A DNA stretch of 6,465 nt from the NCBI GenBank assembly GCA_027295975.1, contig JAPUJX010000584.1, positions 1-6,465 on the forward strand, given 5' to 3'. Under the pieces are notes generated by a model, which saw only the letters and a list, made by a program, of their open reading frames with translations, was not told where the DNA came from and did no database searches. Made by a program: the position numbers and the translations under genes. Of this stretch, positions 1,261-6,177 are shown in pieces. This DNA is from Gammaproteobacteria bacterium. GTDB taxonomy: Bacteria > Pseudomonadota > Gammaproteobacteria > Pseudomonadales > Azotimanducaceae. The stretch's first letter is position 1; each line of letters starts with the position of its first letter.

Positions 1261-1274
1261 GACAGGACACTAGC
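1261..1274. repeat. solitary copy of the terminal sequence of the 4955-5117 element
   Basis: GACAGGACACTAGC here is identical over 14 bases to the minus-strand reading of the left end of the element at 4955-5117 plus two flanking bases, and over 12 bases to its right end. It starts directly after the dehydrogenase TAA and contains the kdsB stop codon (TAG, read 1272-1270). No second end or element body is present, so it is either a remnant or a recombination scar. A chance match of this length to a defined end is unlikely in 6.5 kb, but it is short. Confidence 0.5.
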
Positions 1275-2052
1275 TGGTAGAGGCCCCTACAATCCGCCGC
1301 ATACGATCCAGATCCTCGGCTGTATCCACGCCGCCGGGAACGGGCTCCCGTGCCTTATCCACATGGATTGTTATGCCATGTTCCAGCATACGCAGTTGTT
1401 CCAGCGCCTCCAGTTTCTCCAACCTGGCAACGGGCAACCCGACGAAGCGACGCAGGAGGGCCAACCGGAAACCGTAGATCCCGATATGCCGCCACCACTG
1501 CCCCCCGGGTGGTAACGCTTGTGACTCCAGCTCCGAGTTGGAAAAGTGGCCGCGCGCGTAGGGAATTGGGGCTCGCGAGAAGTACAACGCCCTACCGTCG
1601 GGTCCGGTTACCACTTTCACCACATTGGGATCGAACACCGTCCGCCGATCACGAATCGGTTCGCACAAAGTCGCGACGCCCATCGATGGGTCCGACTCCA
1701 GCATACCCCCCACCTGACGAATCACCGCCGGGGGAATGAGCGGTTCATCACCCTGCGGGTTGATGACAATTGCGTCATCCGGCCATCCACGTGTTTCGGC
1801 AACTTCCATTACCCGATCAGATCCCGAGGCATGATCCGGGTCGGTCAACATCACCTCGATACCGGCGTCGGCAACCACCTCCATCACTCGCACGTCGTCC
1901 GTGGCCACGATGACATCCAGTGGTTCGGCAAGACGCGCCTGTTGAGCGGTACGCACGATCATAGGTTCACCACAGATGTCCGCGAGGGGTTTACCCGGCA
2001 GGCGATGCGATTGATAACGCGCCGGTATCACCACATGGCAACTCAAGCCCAT
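1270..2052 (-). CDS. kdsB: 3-deoxy-manno-octulosonate cytidylyltransferase (CMP-Kdo synthetase)
   Basis: This 260-residue cytoplasmic enzyme joins Kdo to CTP, giving CMP-Kdo for addition of Kdo to lipid IVA by WaaA. Motifs in order: the nucleotide-binding IPARYQSHRLPGKPL (9-23), ATDD (50-53), HASGSDR (74-80), NPQGDEPLI (98-106) with the probable metal ligand D102, YFSRAPIPY (157-165), HIGIYGFR (189-196), LEKLEALEQLRMLEHG (211-226), and GVDTAEDL (241-248) with D243 as probable second metal ligand. Length is normal for the family. Its ATG overlaps the stop of the msbA-lpxK gene as TGATG, so translation is probably coupled. In many relatives a small Trm112-like gene lies between lpxK and kdsB; here it is absent. 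The last codons (ASTS) lead directly into the repeat at 1261-1274, which supplies the stop codon; the conserved core is complete. Confidence 0.96.
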   Translation of the reverse strand: MGLSCHVVIPARYQSHRLPGKPLADICGEPMIVRTAQQARLAEPLDVIVATDDVRVMEVVADAGIEVMLTDPDHASGSDRVMEVAETRGWPDDAIVINPQGDEPLIPPAVIRQVGGMLESDPSMGVATLCEPIRDRRTVFDPNVVKVVTGPDGRALYFSRAPIPYARGHFSNSELESQALPPGGQWWRHIGIYGFRLALLRRFVGLPVARLEKLEALEQLRMLEHGITIHVDKAREPVPGGVDTAEDLDRMRRIVGASTS

Positions 2053-3143
2053 CAGTGCCCTATACCATGTTTGCGCAGCAGTCCCGATAGTCGTTTGCTG
2101 CTGTCGGCGGGGAGTTCAACGTCTATCTCCAGATACCAGCAATTATCCGGAATTTCAGCAAGCCTGCTTATCTTGACCGCATCTTTCTCCGTACAGACCA
2201 CGGGCCACTCATTTTCGAACTTGAACTCGGAACCGTCAAAACGATGGTGATCGCCGTAACCGTGTAACAGAGGAGCGAGACCCAACTCGCGCAAGGTATG
2301 AGCAAACCGCGTCGGGTTGCCGACTCCGGCAATGGCGTGGACATTATGAAAACGGCCGGTAAAATCCTCCCAGGACAACCGTTCGCCACCATCCGTATAC
2401 GGAGATTCCTCTCTGCCCGGGTCAATTTTGACAAATGCAACGGGTACCACCCTCATGACTGTCTCGTCTTCCGCGAGACCCGTGGCGCGACCGTTGCTGA
2501 TCACCCAGTCGACCTCTGCCAAACGAGATACCGGTTCGCGCAGCGGACCGGCCGGTAAGTGCCGACCATTGCCGATACCGCGGTGACCGTCGAGCACTAC
2601 GATTTCCAGGTCCCGCGCGAGGGCGTAATGCTGCAATCCATCGTCGCAAACAACGATATCCGGATTGTGATGTTCGAGTAGAAACCGGGTGGCGGCCACC
2701 CGATTTTTTCCAATCACTACCGGGCAGCCTGCGCGTCTGGCGAGAATGGGCGCTTCGTCACCGACGGTCTCCGGATCGTCGTCCGGCCCTACCAGCAGCG
2801 GCGAGCGGTTGCCGTCTCCACCGTACCCACTGGAAACGATTCCGGGGGAGTACCCTCGGGTTTTGAGCCACTCCACCAACCAGATGACCAAGGGGGTTTT
2901 CCCCGTTCCGCCGGCAGTAATGTTACCTACCACCAACACGGGAACTTCTGCCCGCCACGGGCTCTTTTTACCCGTCAGGTAAGCCCATCGTCTGCGCGCG
3001 GCTATACGCGCGAATATCCATGAGAGCGGGGCGAGCCAACGGGTCCATCCCGCGCCGGAATACCAGGCTCTGGCCAACGGACTAAAAGTGCTTTCGACGT
3101 AACGTGCCGGTTTCACGACAGCGGTTCGCGAAACAACCGGCAC
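2052..3143 (-). other. lpxK: LpxK half of the fusion, with possible internal start
   Basis: This marks the linker tail and kinase domain. The stretch beginning near FSPLARAWYSG and running through APLSW aligns with the membrane-associated N-terminus of stand-alone LpxK. There is no stop between this part and MsbA. An in-frame GTG at 3143-3141 is preceded by GAGG at 3152-3149 with five bases between, and another GTG lies at 3116-3114 without such a site. Separate translation of LpxK from the first GTG is therefore possible in addition to the fusion protein. The LpxK identity is secure; the internal start is a guess. Confidence 0.6.
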
Positions 3144-4970
3144 TTCTACCTCGGGACTCTCTTCTTCGAATTGAGCGTTGTACAACGACGCATACGAACC
3201 CTGTCTGTCGAGCAGTTCCTGATGTTGACCGGATTCGACAATGCGGCCGTTCTCCATCACCAGGATAAGGTCGGCATTTTCTATGGTCGATAACCGATGG
3301 GCGATAACCAGTGTGGTGCGGTTGCGCATGACCTCTTCGAGCGCAGCCTGAATATGGCGTTCGGACTCGGTGTCCAATGCCGACGTTGCCTCATCGAGAA
3401 TGAGAATGGGGGCATCTTTGAGCAACGCCCGGGCAATGGCGACCCGTTGTCTCTGGCCGCCGGAGAGCAGCACCCCATCGTCTCCCACCATGGTCTCCAG
3501 GCCGTGGGGCAATTTGTCGATGAACGGACCCGCATGCGCCCTTTCCAACGCATCGCGCAACTGGACGACACCGGCATCCACCAGCCCACCGTATGCAATA
3601 TTGCGTTCGAGGGTGTCGTTGAACAGGGTAACCTCCTGGGTTACCAGGGCGATCTGTCGGCGCAAAGCTTCCAGCCGGTAGCTGGAAACCGGCACCCCGT
3701 CCAGCAGAATTTCGCCGCTGTCCGGTTCGTAAAACCTTGGAATCATGCTCACGAGGGTAGATTTTCCACTACCAGATTTACCAACCAGGGCAACCGTCTG
3801 ACCAGGCTCGATCGTCAGATTCAGACTCTTGAACACCGCGCTCGATCCTTGTTGATACGTGAACCCGACGTTTTTGAATTCGATCCTTCCGGTGACTCGT
3901 TCCACATCCACCGTACCCTGATCGTCTTCCGCGGGTTGATCCATCTGGCCGAAAATATCCTCCGCCGCCGCCAGTCCCCTCTGCAGGCGGGCATTCACAT
4001 TGGATAGTTTCTGGATGGGTCTCACCAACATGGCTGCCAGTCCGAGGAAGGTGACAATTGAGCCGACGGACAATTCTCCCGCGATCTGGGGCTGGGACAG
4101 CAGCAAAATGAGTAGTGAGATGGTCGCCACGACAAAAATCTGGATGATCTGAGTGCTGGCCACCTTCGTTGCCACCATCTTCAGATTCTGGACCCGATTG
4201 ACCTGGCTCGCCTTGCGGAAGCGCCGGCTCTCATATCTCTCGCCGCCGAATATACGCACCACGCGATAACCGGACACCGTCTCCGATGCTACGTGGGTAA
4301 CGTCCCCCATGGACAGTTGAATGCGTCTGCTGATGCGTCGAAACCGACGACTCGCGTAAACCACTACGAGTCCGACAACCGGCGAGATAACGGCAAACAA
4401 CAGCGTCAGCTCCCAGCTGATCCACAACATCCAGCCCAGAAAGATGATGACCTTGGCCCCGTCCTGAATGATGGACTTGAGCGCATCGGTTCCGGTATCG
4501 CGCAACTGCGCGACGTTGTATGTAAGCCGGGACACCAGGTGACCTTGAGAGCTGGCGTCGAAATACGCACTCGGCATCATCAACAATTGATCGAACAGCT
4601 GGGTGCGCAGGTGGTGGACGACGCTGAAGGAAATTTGGCTCAGCAACATCTCACCGACGATATCGCCCACGGCACGAGCAACGGCCAATCCAAGCAGCAT
4701 CACCGGAATGTACCGTACCGTGCCTACGGGCTCTTTTCCCCACCCATCGATAAAATCGCCGAAGATAGAGACGAAATAGGCTTCCGCACCGCTGCCCAGG
4801 ATGAATCCCATGATCGAGAGAAGAAACAACGCCCAGTAGGGTCGTATGTAGCCGAGAAATCGGCGATACATGGACCAGTCTCCAGCTGCCTCGGGCGTTC
4901 CTTCCGAGGTCAGTACCTGGTTCCCGCCCTTCCCAAGCGGGCCTGGAGTGCTGCTAGTGTCCTGTCCCAT
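2052..4970 (-). CDS. msbA-lpxK: fused lipid A flippase MsbA and tetraacyldisaccharide 4'-kinase LpxK
   Basis: One uninterrupted frame encodes about 972 residues counted from ATG 4970. Residues about 40-600 are MsbA, an inner-membrane ABC exporter that flips core-lipid A. It has six likely membrane helices (about 47-67, 86-106, 173-187, 188-207, 274-292, 302-321), Walker A GKSGSGKS (397-404), Q-loop Q445, signature LSGGQ (502-506), Walker B ILILDEATSALD (522-533) and H-loop H558. Residues about 602-626 form an acidic, valine-rich linker. From about 627 to the end is LpxK, which adds the 4' phosphate to the lipid A disaccharide: P-loop GGTGKT (687-692), GDE (737-739), DDGLQH (776-781), DHH (907-909) and CTEKDAVK (926-933). 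Each half matches its family in order and length (roughly 580 and 330 residues). The start is uncertain: ATG 4970 lies inside a repeat element and lacks a clear ribosome site, while ATG 4871 has GGAG 8 bases upstream. The frame stays open upstream to a TTG at 5057, which is unlikely to be used. Confidence 0.9.
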   Translation of the reverse strand: MGQDTSSTPGPLGKGGNQVLTSEGTPEAAGDWSMYRRFLGYIRPYWALFLLSIMGFILGSGAEAYFVSIFGDFIDGWGKEPVGTVRYIPVMLLGLAVARAVGDIVGEMLLSQISFSVVHHLRTQLFDQLLMMPSAYFDASSQGHLVSRLTYNVAQLRDTGTDALKSIIQDGAKVIIFLGWMLWISWELTLLFAVISPVVGLVVVYASRRFRRISRRIQLSMGDVTHVASETVSGYRVVRIFGGERYESRRFRKASQVNRVQNLKMVATKVASTQIIQIFVVATISLLILLLSQPQIAGELSVGSIVTFLGLAAMLVRPIQKLSNVNARLQRGLAAAEDIFGQMDQPAEDDQGTVDVERVTGRIEFKNVGFTYQQGSSAVFKSLNLTIEPGQTVALVGKSGSGKSTLVSMIPRFYEPDSGEILLDGVPVSSYRLEALRRQIALVTQEVTLFNDTLERNIAYGGLVDAGVVQLRDALERAHAGPFIDKLPHGLETMVGDDGVLLSGGQRQRVAIARALLKDAPILILDEATSALDTESERHIQAALEEVMRNRTTLVIAHRLSTIENADLILVMENGRIVESGQHQELLDRQGSYASLYNAQFEEESPEVEVPVVSRTAVVKPARYVESTFSPLARAWYSGAGWTRWLAPLSWIFARIAARRRWAYLTGKKSPWRAEVPVLVVGNITAGGTGKTPLVIWLVEWLKTRGYSPGIVSSGYGGDGNRSPLLVGPDDDPETVGDEAPILARRAGCPVVIGKNRVAATRFLLEHHNPDIVVCDDGLQHYALARDLEIVVLDGHRGIGNGRHLPAGPLREPVSRLAEVDWVISNGRATGLAEDETVMRVVPVAFVKIDPGREESPYTDGGERLSWEDFTGRFHNVHAIAGVGNPTRFAHTLRELGLAPLLHGYGDHHRFDGSEFKFENEWPVVCTEKDAVKISRLAEIPDNCWYLEIDVELPADSSKRLSGLLRKHGIGH
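4869..4883 (-). promoter_or_regulatory. alternative msbA start with ribosome-binding site
   Basis: GGAG at 4883-4880 precedes an ATG at 4871-4869 by 8 bases. Starting here gives MYRRFLGYIRPYW directly before the first membrane helix and a protein of 939 residues. It would drop the upstream tryptophan (DWS) that seems to align with the E. coli MsbA N-terminus (STWQTFRR), so it is plausible but not clearly better than a start further upstream. Confidence 0.4.
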
Positions 4971-5117
4971 AAATAACTTTGCTAAGTCGCGTAGGATTTT
5001 TCGTGCCACCCAAGGCGGGAGGACGCCGTGTGGTAGGCCCCACACAAGGACGGCCAACGCAGGCGGGGGGGAAAAAGACCAGCGGATTGGTGAATTTGTT
5101 TGTGGGACAGGACACTA
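4955..5117. mobile_element. MITE-like element with terminal inverted repeats, 163 bp
   Basis: The ends are a perfect 15-base inverted repeat: TAGTGTCCTGTCCCA at 4955-4969 and its complement at 5103-5117. The outermost TA on each side may be a target-site duplication, as in IS630/Tc1-mariner-type elements. The inverted symmetry continues inward to 4990/5082 with six G-T pairs and two mismatches, resumes with TTTTTC (4997-5002) against GAAAAA (5071-5076), and a central hairpin pairs 5028-5033 with 5040-5045. The element has no transposase and no credible gene of its own. It lies 14 bases downstream of the exbD stop and overlaps the proposed 5' end of the msbA-lpxK frame, supplying ATG 4970. I do not recognise the named family; the parent transposase would be elsewhere in the genome. 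Confidence 0.8.
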
Positions 5118-5131
5118 ACCACCCAACCCGC

Positions 5132-5557
5132 TCAATCGTCGTCTTCAGATGGTTGGGTGGTGATACTGATATGGGTCAACCCCACCCTTCCCGCCGCATC
5201 CATGGCCTGTACCACCGCCTGATAAGCCACGTTTGCATCGGCGGTGATGATGAGGCGGTCACTCGGTCCCACCGCGGCAAGTGTCTCCTCGAGGGCCCGC
5301 ATCAACGTACGCATCTCCGTATTGGCAAGCAACCTGTCGTTGACCGCATATTCCCCTCGCCGGTCCACCGTTACCTCGATGACGTCTTTGTCAATTTCCA
5401 GCAATTCACCGGCGGCCTCGGGAAGGTCGATCTTGAGCTGTGTTTCGCGAATGAAGGTGGTGGAGACCATGAAGAAGATAAGCAGCAGGAAAACCACGTC
5501 GATGAGCGGTGTCATTTCCACGGTAGCTTCCTCGAGACTTCGTCTGTTTTTCTTCAT
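5132..5557 (-). CDS. exbD: ExbD/TolR-family biopolymer transport protein
   Basis: The 141-residue product has a short basic cytoplasmic tail (MKKNRR), then one membrane helix at about 16-36 (TPLIDVVFLLLIFFMVSTTF), and a periplasmic domain. D20 in the helix matches the proton-carrying aspartate essential in ExbD and TolR. With ExbB it would form a motor that uses the proton gradient to energise an envelope partner. Its ATG overlaps the end of exbB in an ATGA, which suggests coupled translation and fixed stoichiometry. In this genomic position (beside msbA-lpxK-kdsB) the pair is conventionally called exbBD, but no TonB or TolA is in the window, so the energised partner is unknown. It ends in an acidic tail (SEDDD), and the repeat element follows 14 bases after the stop. 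Confidence 0.93.
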   Translation of the reverse strand: MKKNRRSLEEATVEMTPLIDVVFLLLIFFMVSTTFIRETQLKIDLPEAAGELLEIDKDVIEVTVDRRGEYAVNDRLLANTEMRTLMRALEETLAAVGPSDRLIITADANVAYQAVVQAMDAAGRVGLTHISITTQPSEDDD

Positions 5558-6177
5558 AAACGCGGATCCTCCGAGTTATCGCCGTGCATGATGTCGACAA
5601 GTTTGCTTGCCTCCTGCTCCATGTTGATTACCAGTTCATCGACCCGGCGCATGAAAAAGCGGTGGAAGATCAGTGCAGGGATTGCGACGGAGAGCCCGGC
5701 GGCCGTGGTGATCAGGGCTTGAGATATGCCCCCTGCCAGCACGTTGGCATTTCCGGCTCCTTCCAACATCAGGGCGGTGAACACTTTGATCATACCGACC
5801 ACCGTCCCCAGCAATCCCAACAGTGGCGAAACCGAAGCAATGATGCCGAGGGAAGTCAGATATCTTTCCAGGCCGTGACTGACTTGACCGGCGGCCTCCT
5901 CCATGGATTCTTTCATGACATCCCGACCACGTTTCGCGTTGCTGATTCCGGCGGCGAACACCTGTCCCAGTGGACTGGCGTTGCGAAGTTCACGAAGCCG
6001 TTGAGAATCCACCCCATCTGTTTTTATTGCACCCCACACCTGTGCCAAGAGGTTTTTCGGGGTGATACGCGATCTCTGCAGTGTCCATAAACGTTCCACG
6101 CTGATCGCCGCGGCAACGATGCTGCACAGGAGGATGGGCACCATCAACCAACCCCCCGATTGAACGATTTCTAACAC
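5554..6177 (-). CDS. exbB: ExbB/TolQ/MotA-family proton channel protein
   Basis: The 207-residue inner-membrane protein has three expected helices: about 9-29 (GWLMVPILLCSIVAAAISVE), about 110-135 containing SPLLGLLGTVVGMI, and about 150-173 containing ISQALITTAAGLSVAIPALI. The last two motifs are the hallmark of the family and hold conserved threonines (T125, and T157 or T158) that line the proton path with ExbD D20. The loop between helices 1 and 2 is cytoplasmic and includes the conserved ASPLGQVFAAG segment (67-77). The start is a GTG at 6177-6175, chosen because GAGGAG lies 6 bases upstream; an overlapping ATG four bases before it is out of frame and stops after three codons. exbB is the upstream member of an exbB-exbD pair, and the preceding gene ends 30 bases before it, so a longer operon is possible. 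Confidence 0.93.
   Translation of the reverse strand: MLEIVQSGGWLMVPILLCSIVAAAISVERLWTLQRSRITPKNLLAQVWGAIKTDGVDSQRLRELRNASPLGQVFAAGISNAKRGRDVMKESMEEAAGQVSHGLERYLTSLGIIASVSPLLGLLGTVVGMIKVFTALMLEGAGNANVLAGGISQALITTAAGLSVAIPALIFHRFFMRRVDELVINMEQEASKLVDIMHGDNSEDPRL

What the first reader, a model, noticed from the sequence alone, without database searches (positions are those of the whole stretch)
2052..4970. MsbA and LpxK encoded as a single polypeptide
Complete MsbA motifs (Walker A to H-loop) are followed, without a stop, by a roughly 25-residue linker rich in Glu and Val and then a complete LpxK with P-loop, DDGLQH and DHH motifs. Normally these are adjacent separate genes. The fusion would tether the 4'-kinase to the cytoplasmic face of the flippase, although Kdo transfer and late acylation normally lie between the two steps. 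That raises the possibility of a scaffolded lipid A assembly site. I cannot tell from sequence how common this architecture is.
Basis: partly seen in the sequence, partly recalled or inferred. Interest (0 to 1): 0.75.

Follow-up and report, generated by a model that had tools for sequence, protein, structure and literature searches.

The report
MsbA flippase fused to LpxK kinase
In this bacterium, and in most sampled members of its family, the lipid A flippase MsbA and the lipid A kinase LpxK are encoded as one long protein instead of two; it is a real fusion of two neighbouring genes that likely keeps both activities and would tether the kinase to the flippase, but some relatives appear to have split it again, so the tether is probably not essential.

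Summary
One open frame on the minus strand (2052-4970, 972 aa from the ATG at 4970) carries a complete MsbA (TIGR02203, 718 bits, cut-off 602) and a complete LpxK (TIGR00682, 238 bits, cut-off 92), joined by a linker predicted to be disordered. It is not an assembly slip: in the window's own GTDB family 114 of 129 genomes with a readable junction have the fusion. It is the only MsbA over cut-off in 10 of 10 fused family genomes tested, with LpxC, WaaA and acyltransferases present, so it probably does both jobs. Ten genomes of other families of the class are also fused; trees need several independent changes. Fourteen family members are not fused, and one group of seven is clearly a later split. 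The linker is variable, without a conserved internal start. I read it as an ordinary neighbouring-gene fusion giving 1:1 co-production and co-location; substrate channelling is possible but unsupported. I found no description in the literature searched; the database names seen call it MsbA only. Side finding: nine family genomes lack LpxK, LpxC, LpxB, WaaA and a clear MsbA, yet eight keep LptD.

The parts
2052..4970 (-). msbA-lpxK fusion gene, 972 aa from the ATG at 4970 (a longer TTG start at 5057 and a shorter ATG at 4871 are also possible)
   Evidence: most of the 20 homologues aligned have an N-terminal extension before the conserved DWxTYRRLL
3177..4871 (-). MsbA part (residues 1-565 in the numbering of P0002, used throughout)
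   Evidence: TIGR02203 720 bits, Pfam ABC_membrane + ABC_tran, Foldseek best hit P. aeruginosa MsbA 9bd6
3756..3782 (-). MsbA Walker A (GKSGSGKST)
   Evidence: lysine invariant in 40 of 40 rows aligned
3453..3467 (-). MsbA ABC signature LSGGQ
3390..3404 (-). MsbA Walker B with catalytic Glu (E494)
3297..3299 (-). MsbA H-loop histidine (H525)
3090..3161 (-). linker, residues 571-594, predicted disordered
   Evidence: pLDDT under 50; family length from Y564 to W603 27-83 residues, median 41, window 38
2976..3050 (-). predicted N-terminal helix of the LpxK part (residues 608-632), candidate membrane-contact helix
   Evidence: helix H608-632, block pLDDT 89-95; W603, W609, P615, R627, R628 conserved
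2055..3071 (-). LpxK part (residues 601-939)
   Evidence: TIGR00682 238 bits, PF02606 339 bits; A. aeolicus LpxK 4ehx E 9.1e-21
2895..2912 (-). LpxK P-loop GGTGKT (K658, T659)
2829..2831 (-). Ser681 at the place of A. aeolicus Arg72, a lipid A contact; Arg in nearly all relatives compared
   Evidence: 57 of 59 relatives Arg; same-genus G306 and G333 Arg
2628..2645 (-). LpxK DDGLQH (D743, D744, H748)
2244..2252 (-). LpxK DHH (H875 = A. aeolicus His261)
1270..2052 (-). kdsB (CMP-Kdo synthetase), shares one base with the fusion stop
   Evidence: found downstream of lpxK in 106 of 108 fused and 14 of 14 unfused family loci with room
5132..5557 (-). exbD/tolR-like gene
   Evidence: found upstream in 69 of 83 fused and 12 of 13 unfused family loci with room
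5554..6177 (-). exbB/tolQ-like gene

Best explanation
The gene at 2052-4970 on the minus strand encodes one protein in which a complete MsbA lipid A flippase is followed, across a linker predicted to be disordered, by a complete LpxK lipid A 4'-kinase, and it likely works as a normal MsbA dimer that carries two active LpxK domains on flexible tethers. Shown from sequence: one frame, both families over their curated cut-offs, the catalytic motifs of both intact, and in the 77%-complete assembly no second LpxK and no second MsbA over the family cut-off. Inferred: the MsbA half dimerises and flips Kdo-lipid A as in E. coli; each LpxK half reaches the inner leaflet with its own N-terminal helix and phosphorylates the tetraacyl disaccharide; WaaA and the late acyltransferases, encoded elsewhere, act between the two steps. 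Inferred effect of the fusion: the two enzymes are made in a fixed 1:1 ratio and end up at the same place in the membrane. Inferred origin: msbA and lpxK are neighbours that overlap or nearly touch in many relatives, often in the same frame with a single stop between them, so loss of that stop joins them.
For: One frame and both families over cut-off. All LpxK residues named in passages of PMC6286764 as catalytic in A. aeolicus (K51, T52, D99, E100, D138, D139, H261) are present in the window, and apart from one Ser for T52 they are invariant in the 59 relatives compared (59 of the 119 in alignment A2). MsbA ATPase motifs invariant in 40 of 40 rows. One LpxK in the assembly; the fusion is the only MsbA over the TIGR02203 cut-off in 10 of 10 fused family genomes tested, 7 of them single-contig assemblies, and in 7 of 7 fused genomes of other families tested. 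LpxC, WaaA and Lip_A_acyltrans proteins present in the 10. Nine of nine LpxK-less family genomes tested also lack MsbA over cut-off. Model: both domains mostly confident, residues 571-594 under pLDDT 50, helix 608-632 confident. In-frame start codons with a Shine-Dalgarno-like site in the linker in 9 of 114 genomes against 20% of 2,036 control stretches, so no sign that free LpxK is made from an internal start. In the nine best-scoring unfused relatives that were fetched (L053-L061) the two frames are in register, eight separated by one stop codon and one by six bases.
Against: No experiment. The genome held is 77% complete, so a second copy could be missing from it. The window's LpxK has Ser at the Arg72 lipid A contact and its MsbA has Gln at E. 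coli K299 and R148 (those roles are recalled), so its own activity could be reduced. NF008381, the E. coli-type MsbA model, is not reached (608.6 bits, cut-off 867). The amphipathic character of the LpxK helix is weak by hydrophobic moment (5.5% of shuffles as high). Two stretches of the MsbA half are also under pLDDT 50 (173-178, 257-264), and pTM of the whole model is 0.57, so the relative placing of the domains is unknown.
Confidence: 0.62

Rival explanations
1. The fusion is selectively neutral or nearly so: a stop codon between two neighbouring genes was lost, both halves work independently, and nothing is gained by the tether.
For: Linker variable in length (27-83 residues) and less conserved than the domains (25 and 22 of 35 residues identical to G306 and G333, against 81-87% in the domains); seven g4 genomes went back to two genes inside fused relatives (four of the seven also); G317 likewise.
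Against: 114 of 129 readable family junctions are fused and both deep branches of the family are mostly fused, longer-lived than a freely reverting state would suggest; fusion arose several times, though neighbouring genes make that easy.
Confidence: 0.28
2. A scaffold that channels substrate: the tethered kinase feeds lipid IVA to MsbA or to a WaaA/LpxL complex gathered around it.
For: A linker of about 40 residues leaves room for it. A passage of PMC6286764 says E. [quoted passage not shown]
Against: WaaA and acyltransferases are kept as separate genes in 10 of 10 fused genomes tested; none of six recalled lipid A contact columns of MsbA changes in character with the fusion; unfused relatives exist. 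No test of interaction was possible.
Confidence: 0.1
3. Two products are made: the fusion is cleaved in the linker, or free LpxK is also made from an internal start.
For: The linker is predicted disordered, a usual site for proteases; the window has one GTG in the linker with a weak purine-rich site upstream.
Against: Internal start plus Shine-Dalgarno-like site is rarer in the linker (9 of 114) than in control stretches (20%). Cleavage was not testable.
Confidence: 0.08
4. Assembly or base-calling error joined two separate genes.
For: The window is from a fragmented genome of 680 contigs.
Against: Same architecture in 113 further family genomes, in proteins from other contigs at 82-83% identity, and in single-contig genomes (G323, G325, G345, G356, G358, G360, G400).
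Confidence: 0.01

Closest known systems
E. coli MsbA and LpxK (msbA-lpxK operon)
   Same: Both domains, their order, and kdsB further downstream; genes co-transcribed (passages of PMC10328246 and PMC4412817)
   Different: Two proteins from two genes that overlap by 4 bases; here one polypeptide
P. aeruginosa MsbA (PDB 9bd6) and A. aeolicus LpxK (PDB 4ehx)
   Same: Closest solved relatives of the two halves: 9bd6 by sequence and fold, 4ehx by sequence
   Different: Stand-alone proteins
LpxC-FabZ fusion of Bacteroidetes, Chlorobi and Verrucomicrobia
   Same: Another fusion of neighbouring lipid A genes (passage of PMC3087551)
   Different: Different enzymes, one of lipid A and one of fatty acid synthesis
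waaA-lpxK gene cluster
   Same: LpxK beside another lipid A gene (passage of PMC3087551)
   Different: Consecutive steps, clustered rather than fused; LpxK and MsbA are not consecutive steps

Membership tests
MsbA (TIGR02203) | Full-length match over the curated cut-off | tested here: met
   718.2 bits, cut-off 602, positions 1-572
MsbA (TIGR02203) | Walker A, Q-loop, LSGGQ, Walker B Glu, H-loop | tested here: met
   K370, Q412, S470, D493, E494, H525, invariant in 40 of 40 rows
MsbA (TIGR02203) | Basic residues of the lipid A pocket at E. coli R78, R148, K299 (roles recalled) | tested here: inconclusive
   R78 kept; R148 and K299 are Gln in the window. In the family R148 is Gln in 59 and Arg in 43 of 115 fused rows and Gln in 8 of 13 split rows; K299 is Gln in 3 of 115 fused rows
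E. coli-type MsbA (NF008381) | Match over the curated cut-off | tested here: not met
   608.6 bits, cut-off 867
MsbA (TIGR02203) | Flips core-lipid A | not testable with these tools
   needs a transport or complementation assay
LpxK (TIGR00682, PF02606) | Full-length match over the curated cut-offs | tested here: met
   238 bits (91.95) and 339 bits (27)
LpxK (TIGR00682, PF02606) | Catalytic residues K51, T52, D99, E100, D138, D139, H261 (A. aeolicus) | tested here: met
   K658, T659, D705, E706, D743, D744, H875 (roles from passages)
LpxK (TIGR00682, PF02606) | Lipid A contacts R72, R119, H143 (not a defining feature of the models, but of the known site) | tested here: not met
   R119 and H143 kept; R72 is Ser681 in the window although Arg in 57 of 59 relatives. 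This lowers confidence in full activity of this one sequence, not in the family placing of the fusion type
LpxK (TIGR00682, PF02606) | N-terminal amphipathic membrane helix | tested here: inconclusive
   helix 608-632 predicted; hydrophobic moment 0.51, reached by 5.5% of shuffles
LpxK (TIGR00682, PF02606) | 4'-kinase activity | not testable with these tools
   needs an enzyme assay

The most novel reading that the evidence does not exclude
A covalent flippase-kinase station: each MsbA dimer holds two LpxK domains against the inner leaflet, so that 4'-phosphorylation and flipping are coupled in space and in amount, with WaaA and the acyltransferases recruited around it, making lipid A assembly and export one local unit in this bacterial family.
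Probability: 0.12. Interest if true: 0.7.

Novelty: new variant of a known kind. Interest (0 to 1): 0.4.

Why it matters
Two enzymes of the outer membrane lipid pathway are one protein across most of a sampled bacterial family, and the fusion arose several times. Every source name shown for these proteins mentions MsbA only (most rows have no name and some names are cut), so pathway reconstruction by name would report lpxK missing. Because close relatives in genus g4 have split the gene again, the family is a natural experiment: comparing fused and split members would test directly whether tethering LpxK to MsbA changes lipid A flux. It also offers a construct for studying both enzymes together.

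Tried and rejected
Assembly artefact: rejected. Internal start for free LpxK: not supported. A change in the MsbA lipid A contacts that goes with the fusion: not found. In one search the six columns (E. coli R78, R148, K299, R188, R238, K243; roles recalled) keep their character in fused and split family rows; the one visible difference, Arg more often than Lys at K299 in fused rows (74 and 35 of 115, against 4 and 8 of 13), is basic for basic, and many rows have gaps at R78. Open-frame length alone as a sign of fusion: rejected as unreliable; G102 has a 968-aa frame over LpxK but MsbA lies in another frame (L094), and twelve loci picked for long frames or split matches held no fusion (0 of 12). 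Family counts therefore rest on DNA read locus by locus.

The genome-contig scan was meant to give organism names; its two peptide patterns were too general and it returned mostly other ABC transporters. Only L103 helped: titled Pseudomonadales bacterium isolate HKST-UBA223, its contig length (10,797) and its fused fragment equal those of family genome G341, so I infer that the family belongs to Pseudomonadales, and the class to Gammaproteobacteria.

Foldseek: the 50 rows shown are all ABC transporters, so the fold of the LpxK half was not tested separately. One search used a gapped query by mistake and its FUSED labels for L108, L111, L116, L118 and L120 are wrong; one search replaces it. Phylum search (299 genomes): among the matches listed only the window and G515 are unstopped over the full length; the list is cut, so other classes are not excluded.

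Literature: searches for MsbA+LpxK+fusion, MsbA-LpxK, LpxK+gene fusion, LpxK+MsbA+fused and a four-term search (titles and starts of abstracts seen) listed no paper on this fusion. Searches were searches for background. I read passages only of PMC12444477, PMC6286764, PMC3087551, PMC10328246 and PMC4412817. Most subscription papers and all bioRxiv preprints are outside the library.
Full report
What is there. The minus strand of 2052-5057 is one open frame. From the ATG at 4970 it encodes 972 residues, 106.8 kDa. Pfam finds ABC_membrane, ABC_tran and LpxK in order, all over threshold; NCBIfam finds the equivalog models TIGR02203 (MsbA, 718.2 bits, cut-off 602) and TIGR00682 (LpxK, 238 bits, cut-off 91.95). 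The stricter E. coli-type MsbA model NF008381 is not reached (608.6, cut-off 867). Upstream on the same strand are exbD/tolR-like and exbB/tolQ-like genes, downstream kdsB, which shares one base with the fusion's stop; a short-chain dehydrogenase gene lies on the plus strand at 445-1260. In E. coli K-12 the order is msbA, lpxK, ycaQ, ycaR, kdsB, with msbA and lpxK overlapping by 4 bases.

Both halves look functional. In LpxK, residues described as catalytic in the A. aeolicus enzyme (K51, T52, D99, E100, D138, D139, H261; passages of PMC6286764) correspond to K658, T659, D705, E706, D743, D744 and H875 by the alignment, and are invariant in the 59 relatives compared (of 119 in alignment A2) except one Ser for T52. 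One exception counts against this particular sequence: the lipid A contact R72 is Ser681 in the window, Arg in 57 of 59 relatives and Arg in the two same-genus genomes G306 and G333. In MsbA the ATPase motif residues checked are invariant in 40 of 40 rows; of the recalled E. coli lipid A pocket residues R78 is kept but R148 and K299 are Gln in the window. Across the family these columns show no change of character between fused and split members, so they do not go with the fusion.

Linker and model. AlphaFold2 on an alignment of 120 fused homologues gives mean pLDDT 86.4 and pTM 0.57; residues 571-594 fall below 50 (as do 173-178 and 257-264 in the MsbA half), and a helix at 608-632 at the start of LpxK is confident. 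Foldseek's top hit is P. aeruginosa MsbA 9bd6. Between the conserved Y564 and W603 the linker has 27-83 residues, median 41, in 116 loci of 114 genomes (two genomes counted twice), 38 in the window. Against G306 and G333, 25 and 22 of 35 linker residues are identical, compared with 81-87% in MsbA's two domains and LpxK; dN/dS of the linker is 0.08 and 0.20, with dS near saturation for the first, so this is a rough figure. In-frame start codons with a Shine-Dalgarno-like site occur in the linker of 9 of 114 genomes against 20% of 2,036 control stretches.

How common it is. In a drawn sample of 150 genomes of the window's GTDB family, 135 have LpxK. I took DNA for 133 of them and read each junction: 114 fused; 1 (G344) fused at the junction but with an in-frame TAG inside MsbA; 14 not fused; 4 cut by a contig end (G369, G398, G359, G389). 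The two not fetched (G397, G380) begin at a contig end. So 114 of 129 readable junctions. Of the 14 not fused (five of genus g147, seven of g4, G317, G417), 12 have a whole MsbA frame just upstream; in G321 only a short C-terminal MsbA piece matches, and in G417 most of MsbA is missing. The 120 proteins listed by the protein search all have the three-domain architecture, but that list is the best-scoring 120 of 7,998, includes the window's own, and favours full-length matches. In 369 genomes of the class, 10 outside the family align over the full length without a stop in the rows listed and all 10 are fused when read from DNA (L084-L093). In the order sample (293 genomes, about half of the matches listed) frames long enough for a fusion appear only in the window's family, apart from G102, which is not a fusion.

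History. A FastTree of MsbA plus LpxK without the linker (173 rows, 891 columns) puts the 129 family rows together (0.89) with fused members on both deep branches; the fewest fused/unfused changes are 10. An IQ-TREE of 83 chosen rows, leaving out G417, needs 9, and its starred branches alone force 5. The seven unfused g4 genomes form one group beside three fused g4 genomes inside fused genera (1.0 and 0.995; four of the seven, with support 99 and 100), so that is a split of a fused gene; MsbA ends shortly after its last conserved residues and lpxK frames open near the W603 position. G317 also lies among fused relatives (0.94, 93). For g147, near the base of one branch, primitive separation and a split are equally likely. 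G417 is peculiar: an N-terminal MsbA scrap runs straight into the linker and LpxK, and no other MsbA over cut-off exists; I regard it as a probable assembly deletion. Outside the family the fused rows lie in at least four places of the tree (G494; G515; G788 with G693, near G623 and G608; G604, G710 and G460), with moderate to good support (84-100), and G475 is unresolved.

Mechanism. In 10 fused family genomes, seven of them on a single contig, the fusion is the only MsbA over the TIGR02203 cut-off, as it is in 7 of 7 fused genomes of other families tested. LpxC, WaaA and Lip_A_acyltrans proteins are present in all 10. So the protein most likely performs both the 4'-kinase step and flipping, with WaaA and acylation in between carried out by separate proteins. 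The inferred arrangement is an MsbA dimer with two LpxK domains on flexible tethers. Nothing shows channelling, and reversion to two genes argues that the tether is not essential. What remains is fixed 1:1 production and co-location; whether it is an advantage or neutral cannot be settled from sequence. One modelling paper estimated about two LpxK per MsbA in E. coli (PMC4412817 passage), so 1:1 would be a change. A likely route to the fusion is visible in unfused relatives: in nine of nine fetched as the best-scoring unfused matches (L053-L061) the two frames are in register, with one stop codon between them in eight and six bases in one.

Novelty. Five searches of the open full-text library listed no report of an MsbA-LpxK fusion. 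A known parallel is the LpxC-FabZ fusion (PMC3087551 passage). I file it as a new variant of a known kind: two known enzymes in a fused architecture.

Side result. Fifteen of the 150 family genomes show no LpxK. I tested nine of these (g126 five, g129 two, G312, G322): none has LpxC, LpxB, WaaA over cut-off (G322 has a weak match below it) or MsbA over cut-off, yet eight of nine have LptD over cut-off and all nine have Lip_A_acyltrans homologues. All but one of the nine are 90% complete or better. The lipid A pathway seems lost while the outer-membrane LPS translocon is kept. Of the other six, not tested, two are well below 90% complete.

Noticed in passing
genomes G299, G327, G347, G363, G379 (g126), G302, G330 (g129), G312, G322; Nine family genomes lack LpxK, LpxC, LpxB, and WaaA and MsbA over cut-off, but eight of nine keep LptD: apparent lipid A-free lineages that retain the LPS translocon, perhaps for another lipid.
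   Followed up: partly
window 2829-2831 (Ser681): The LpxK half has Ser where nearly all relatives compared have the lipid A-contacting Arg (A. aeolicus R72); real change or base-calling error unknown.
   Followed up: partly
L078 (G344): In-frame TAG inside the MsbA part of an otherwise fused gene, near the start of the ATPase domain; error or real interruption not known.
   Followed up: no
L074 (G417): Most of MsbA is missing between its N-terminus and the linker, and no other MsbA over cut-off is in the genome; probably an assembly deletion.
   Followed up: partly
L066 (G321): Upstream of an unfused lpxK only a short C-terminal MsbA piece matches; MsbA may be broken or misassembled there.
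   Followed up: no
G000 C498 and C426; G323; G358: Two LpxC matches in the window's genome and in two single-contig relatives, suggesting an lpxC duplication in part of the family.
   Followed up: no
genomes of group f9/g15: Five of six sampled genomes of another family of the order (G008, G113, G140, G164, G186; G051 has one) show no LpxK match.
   Followed up: no
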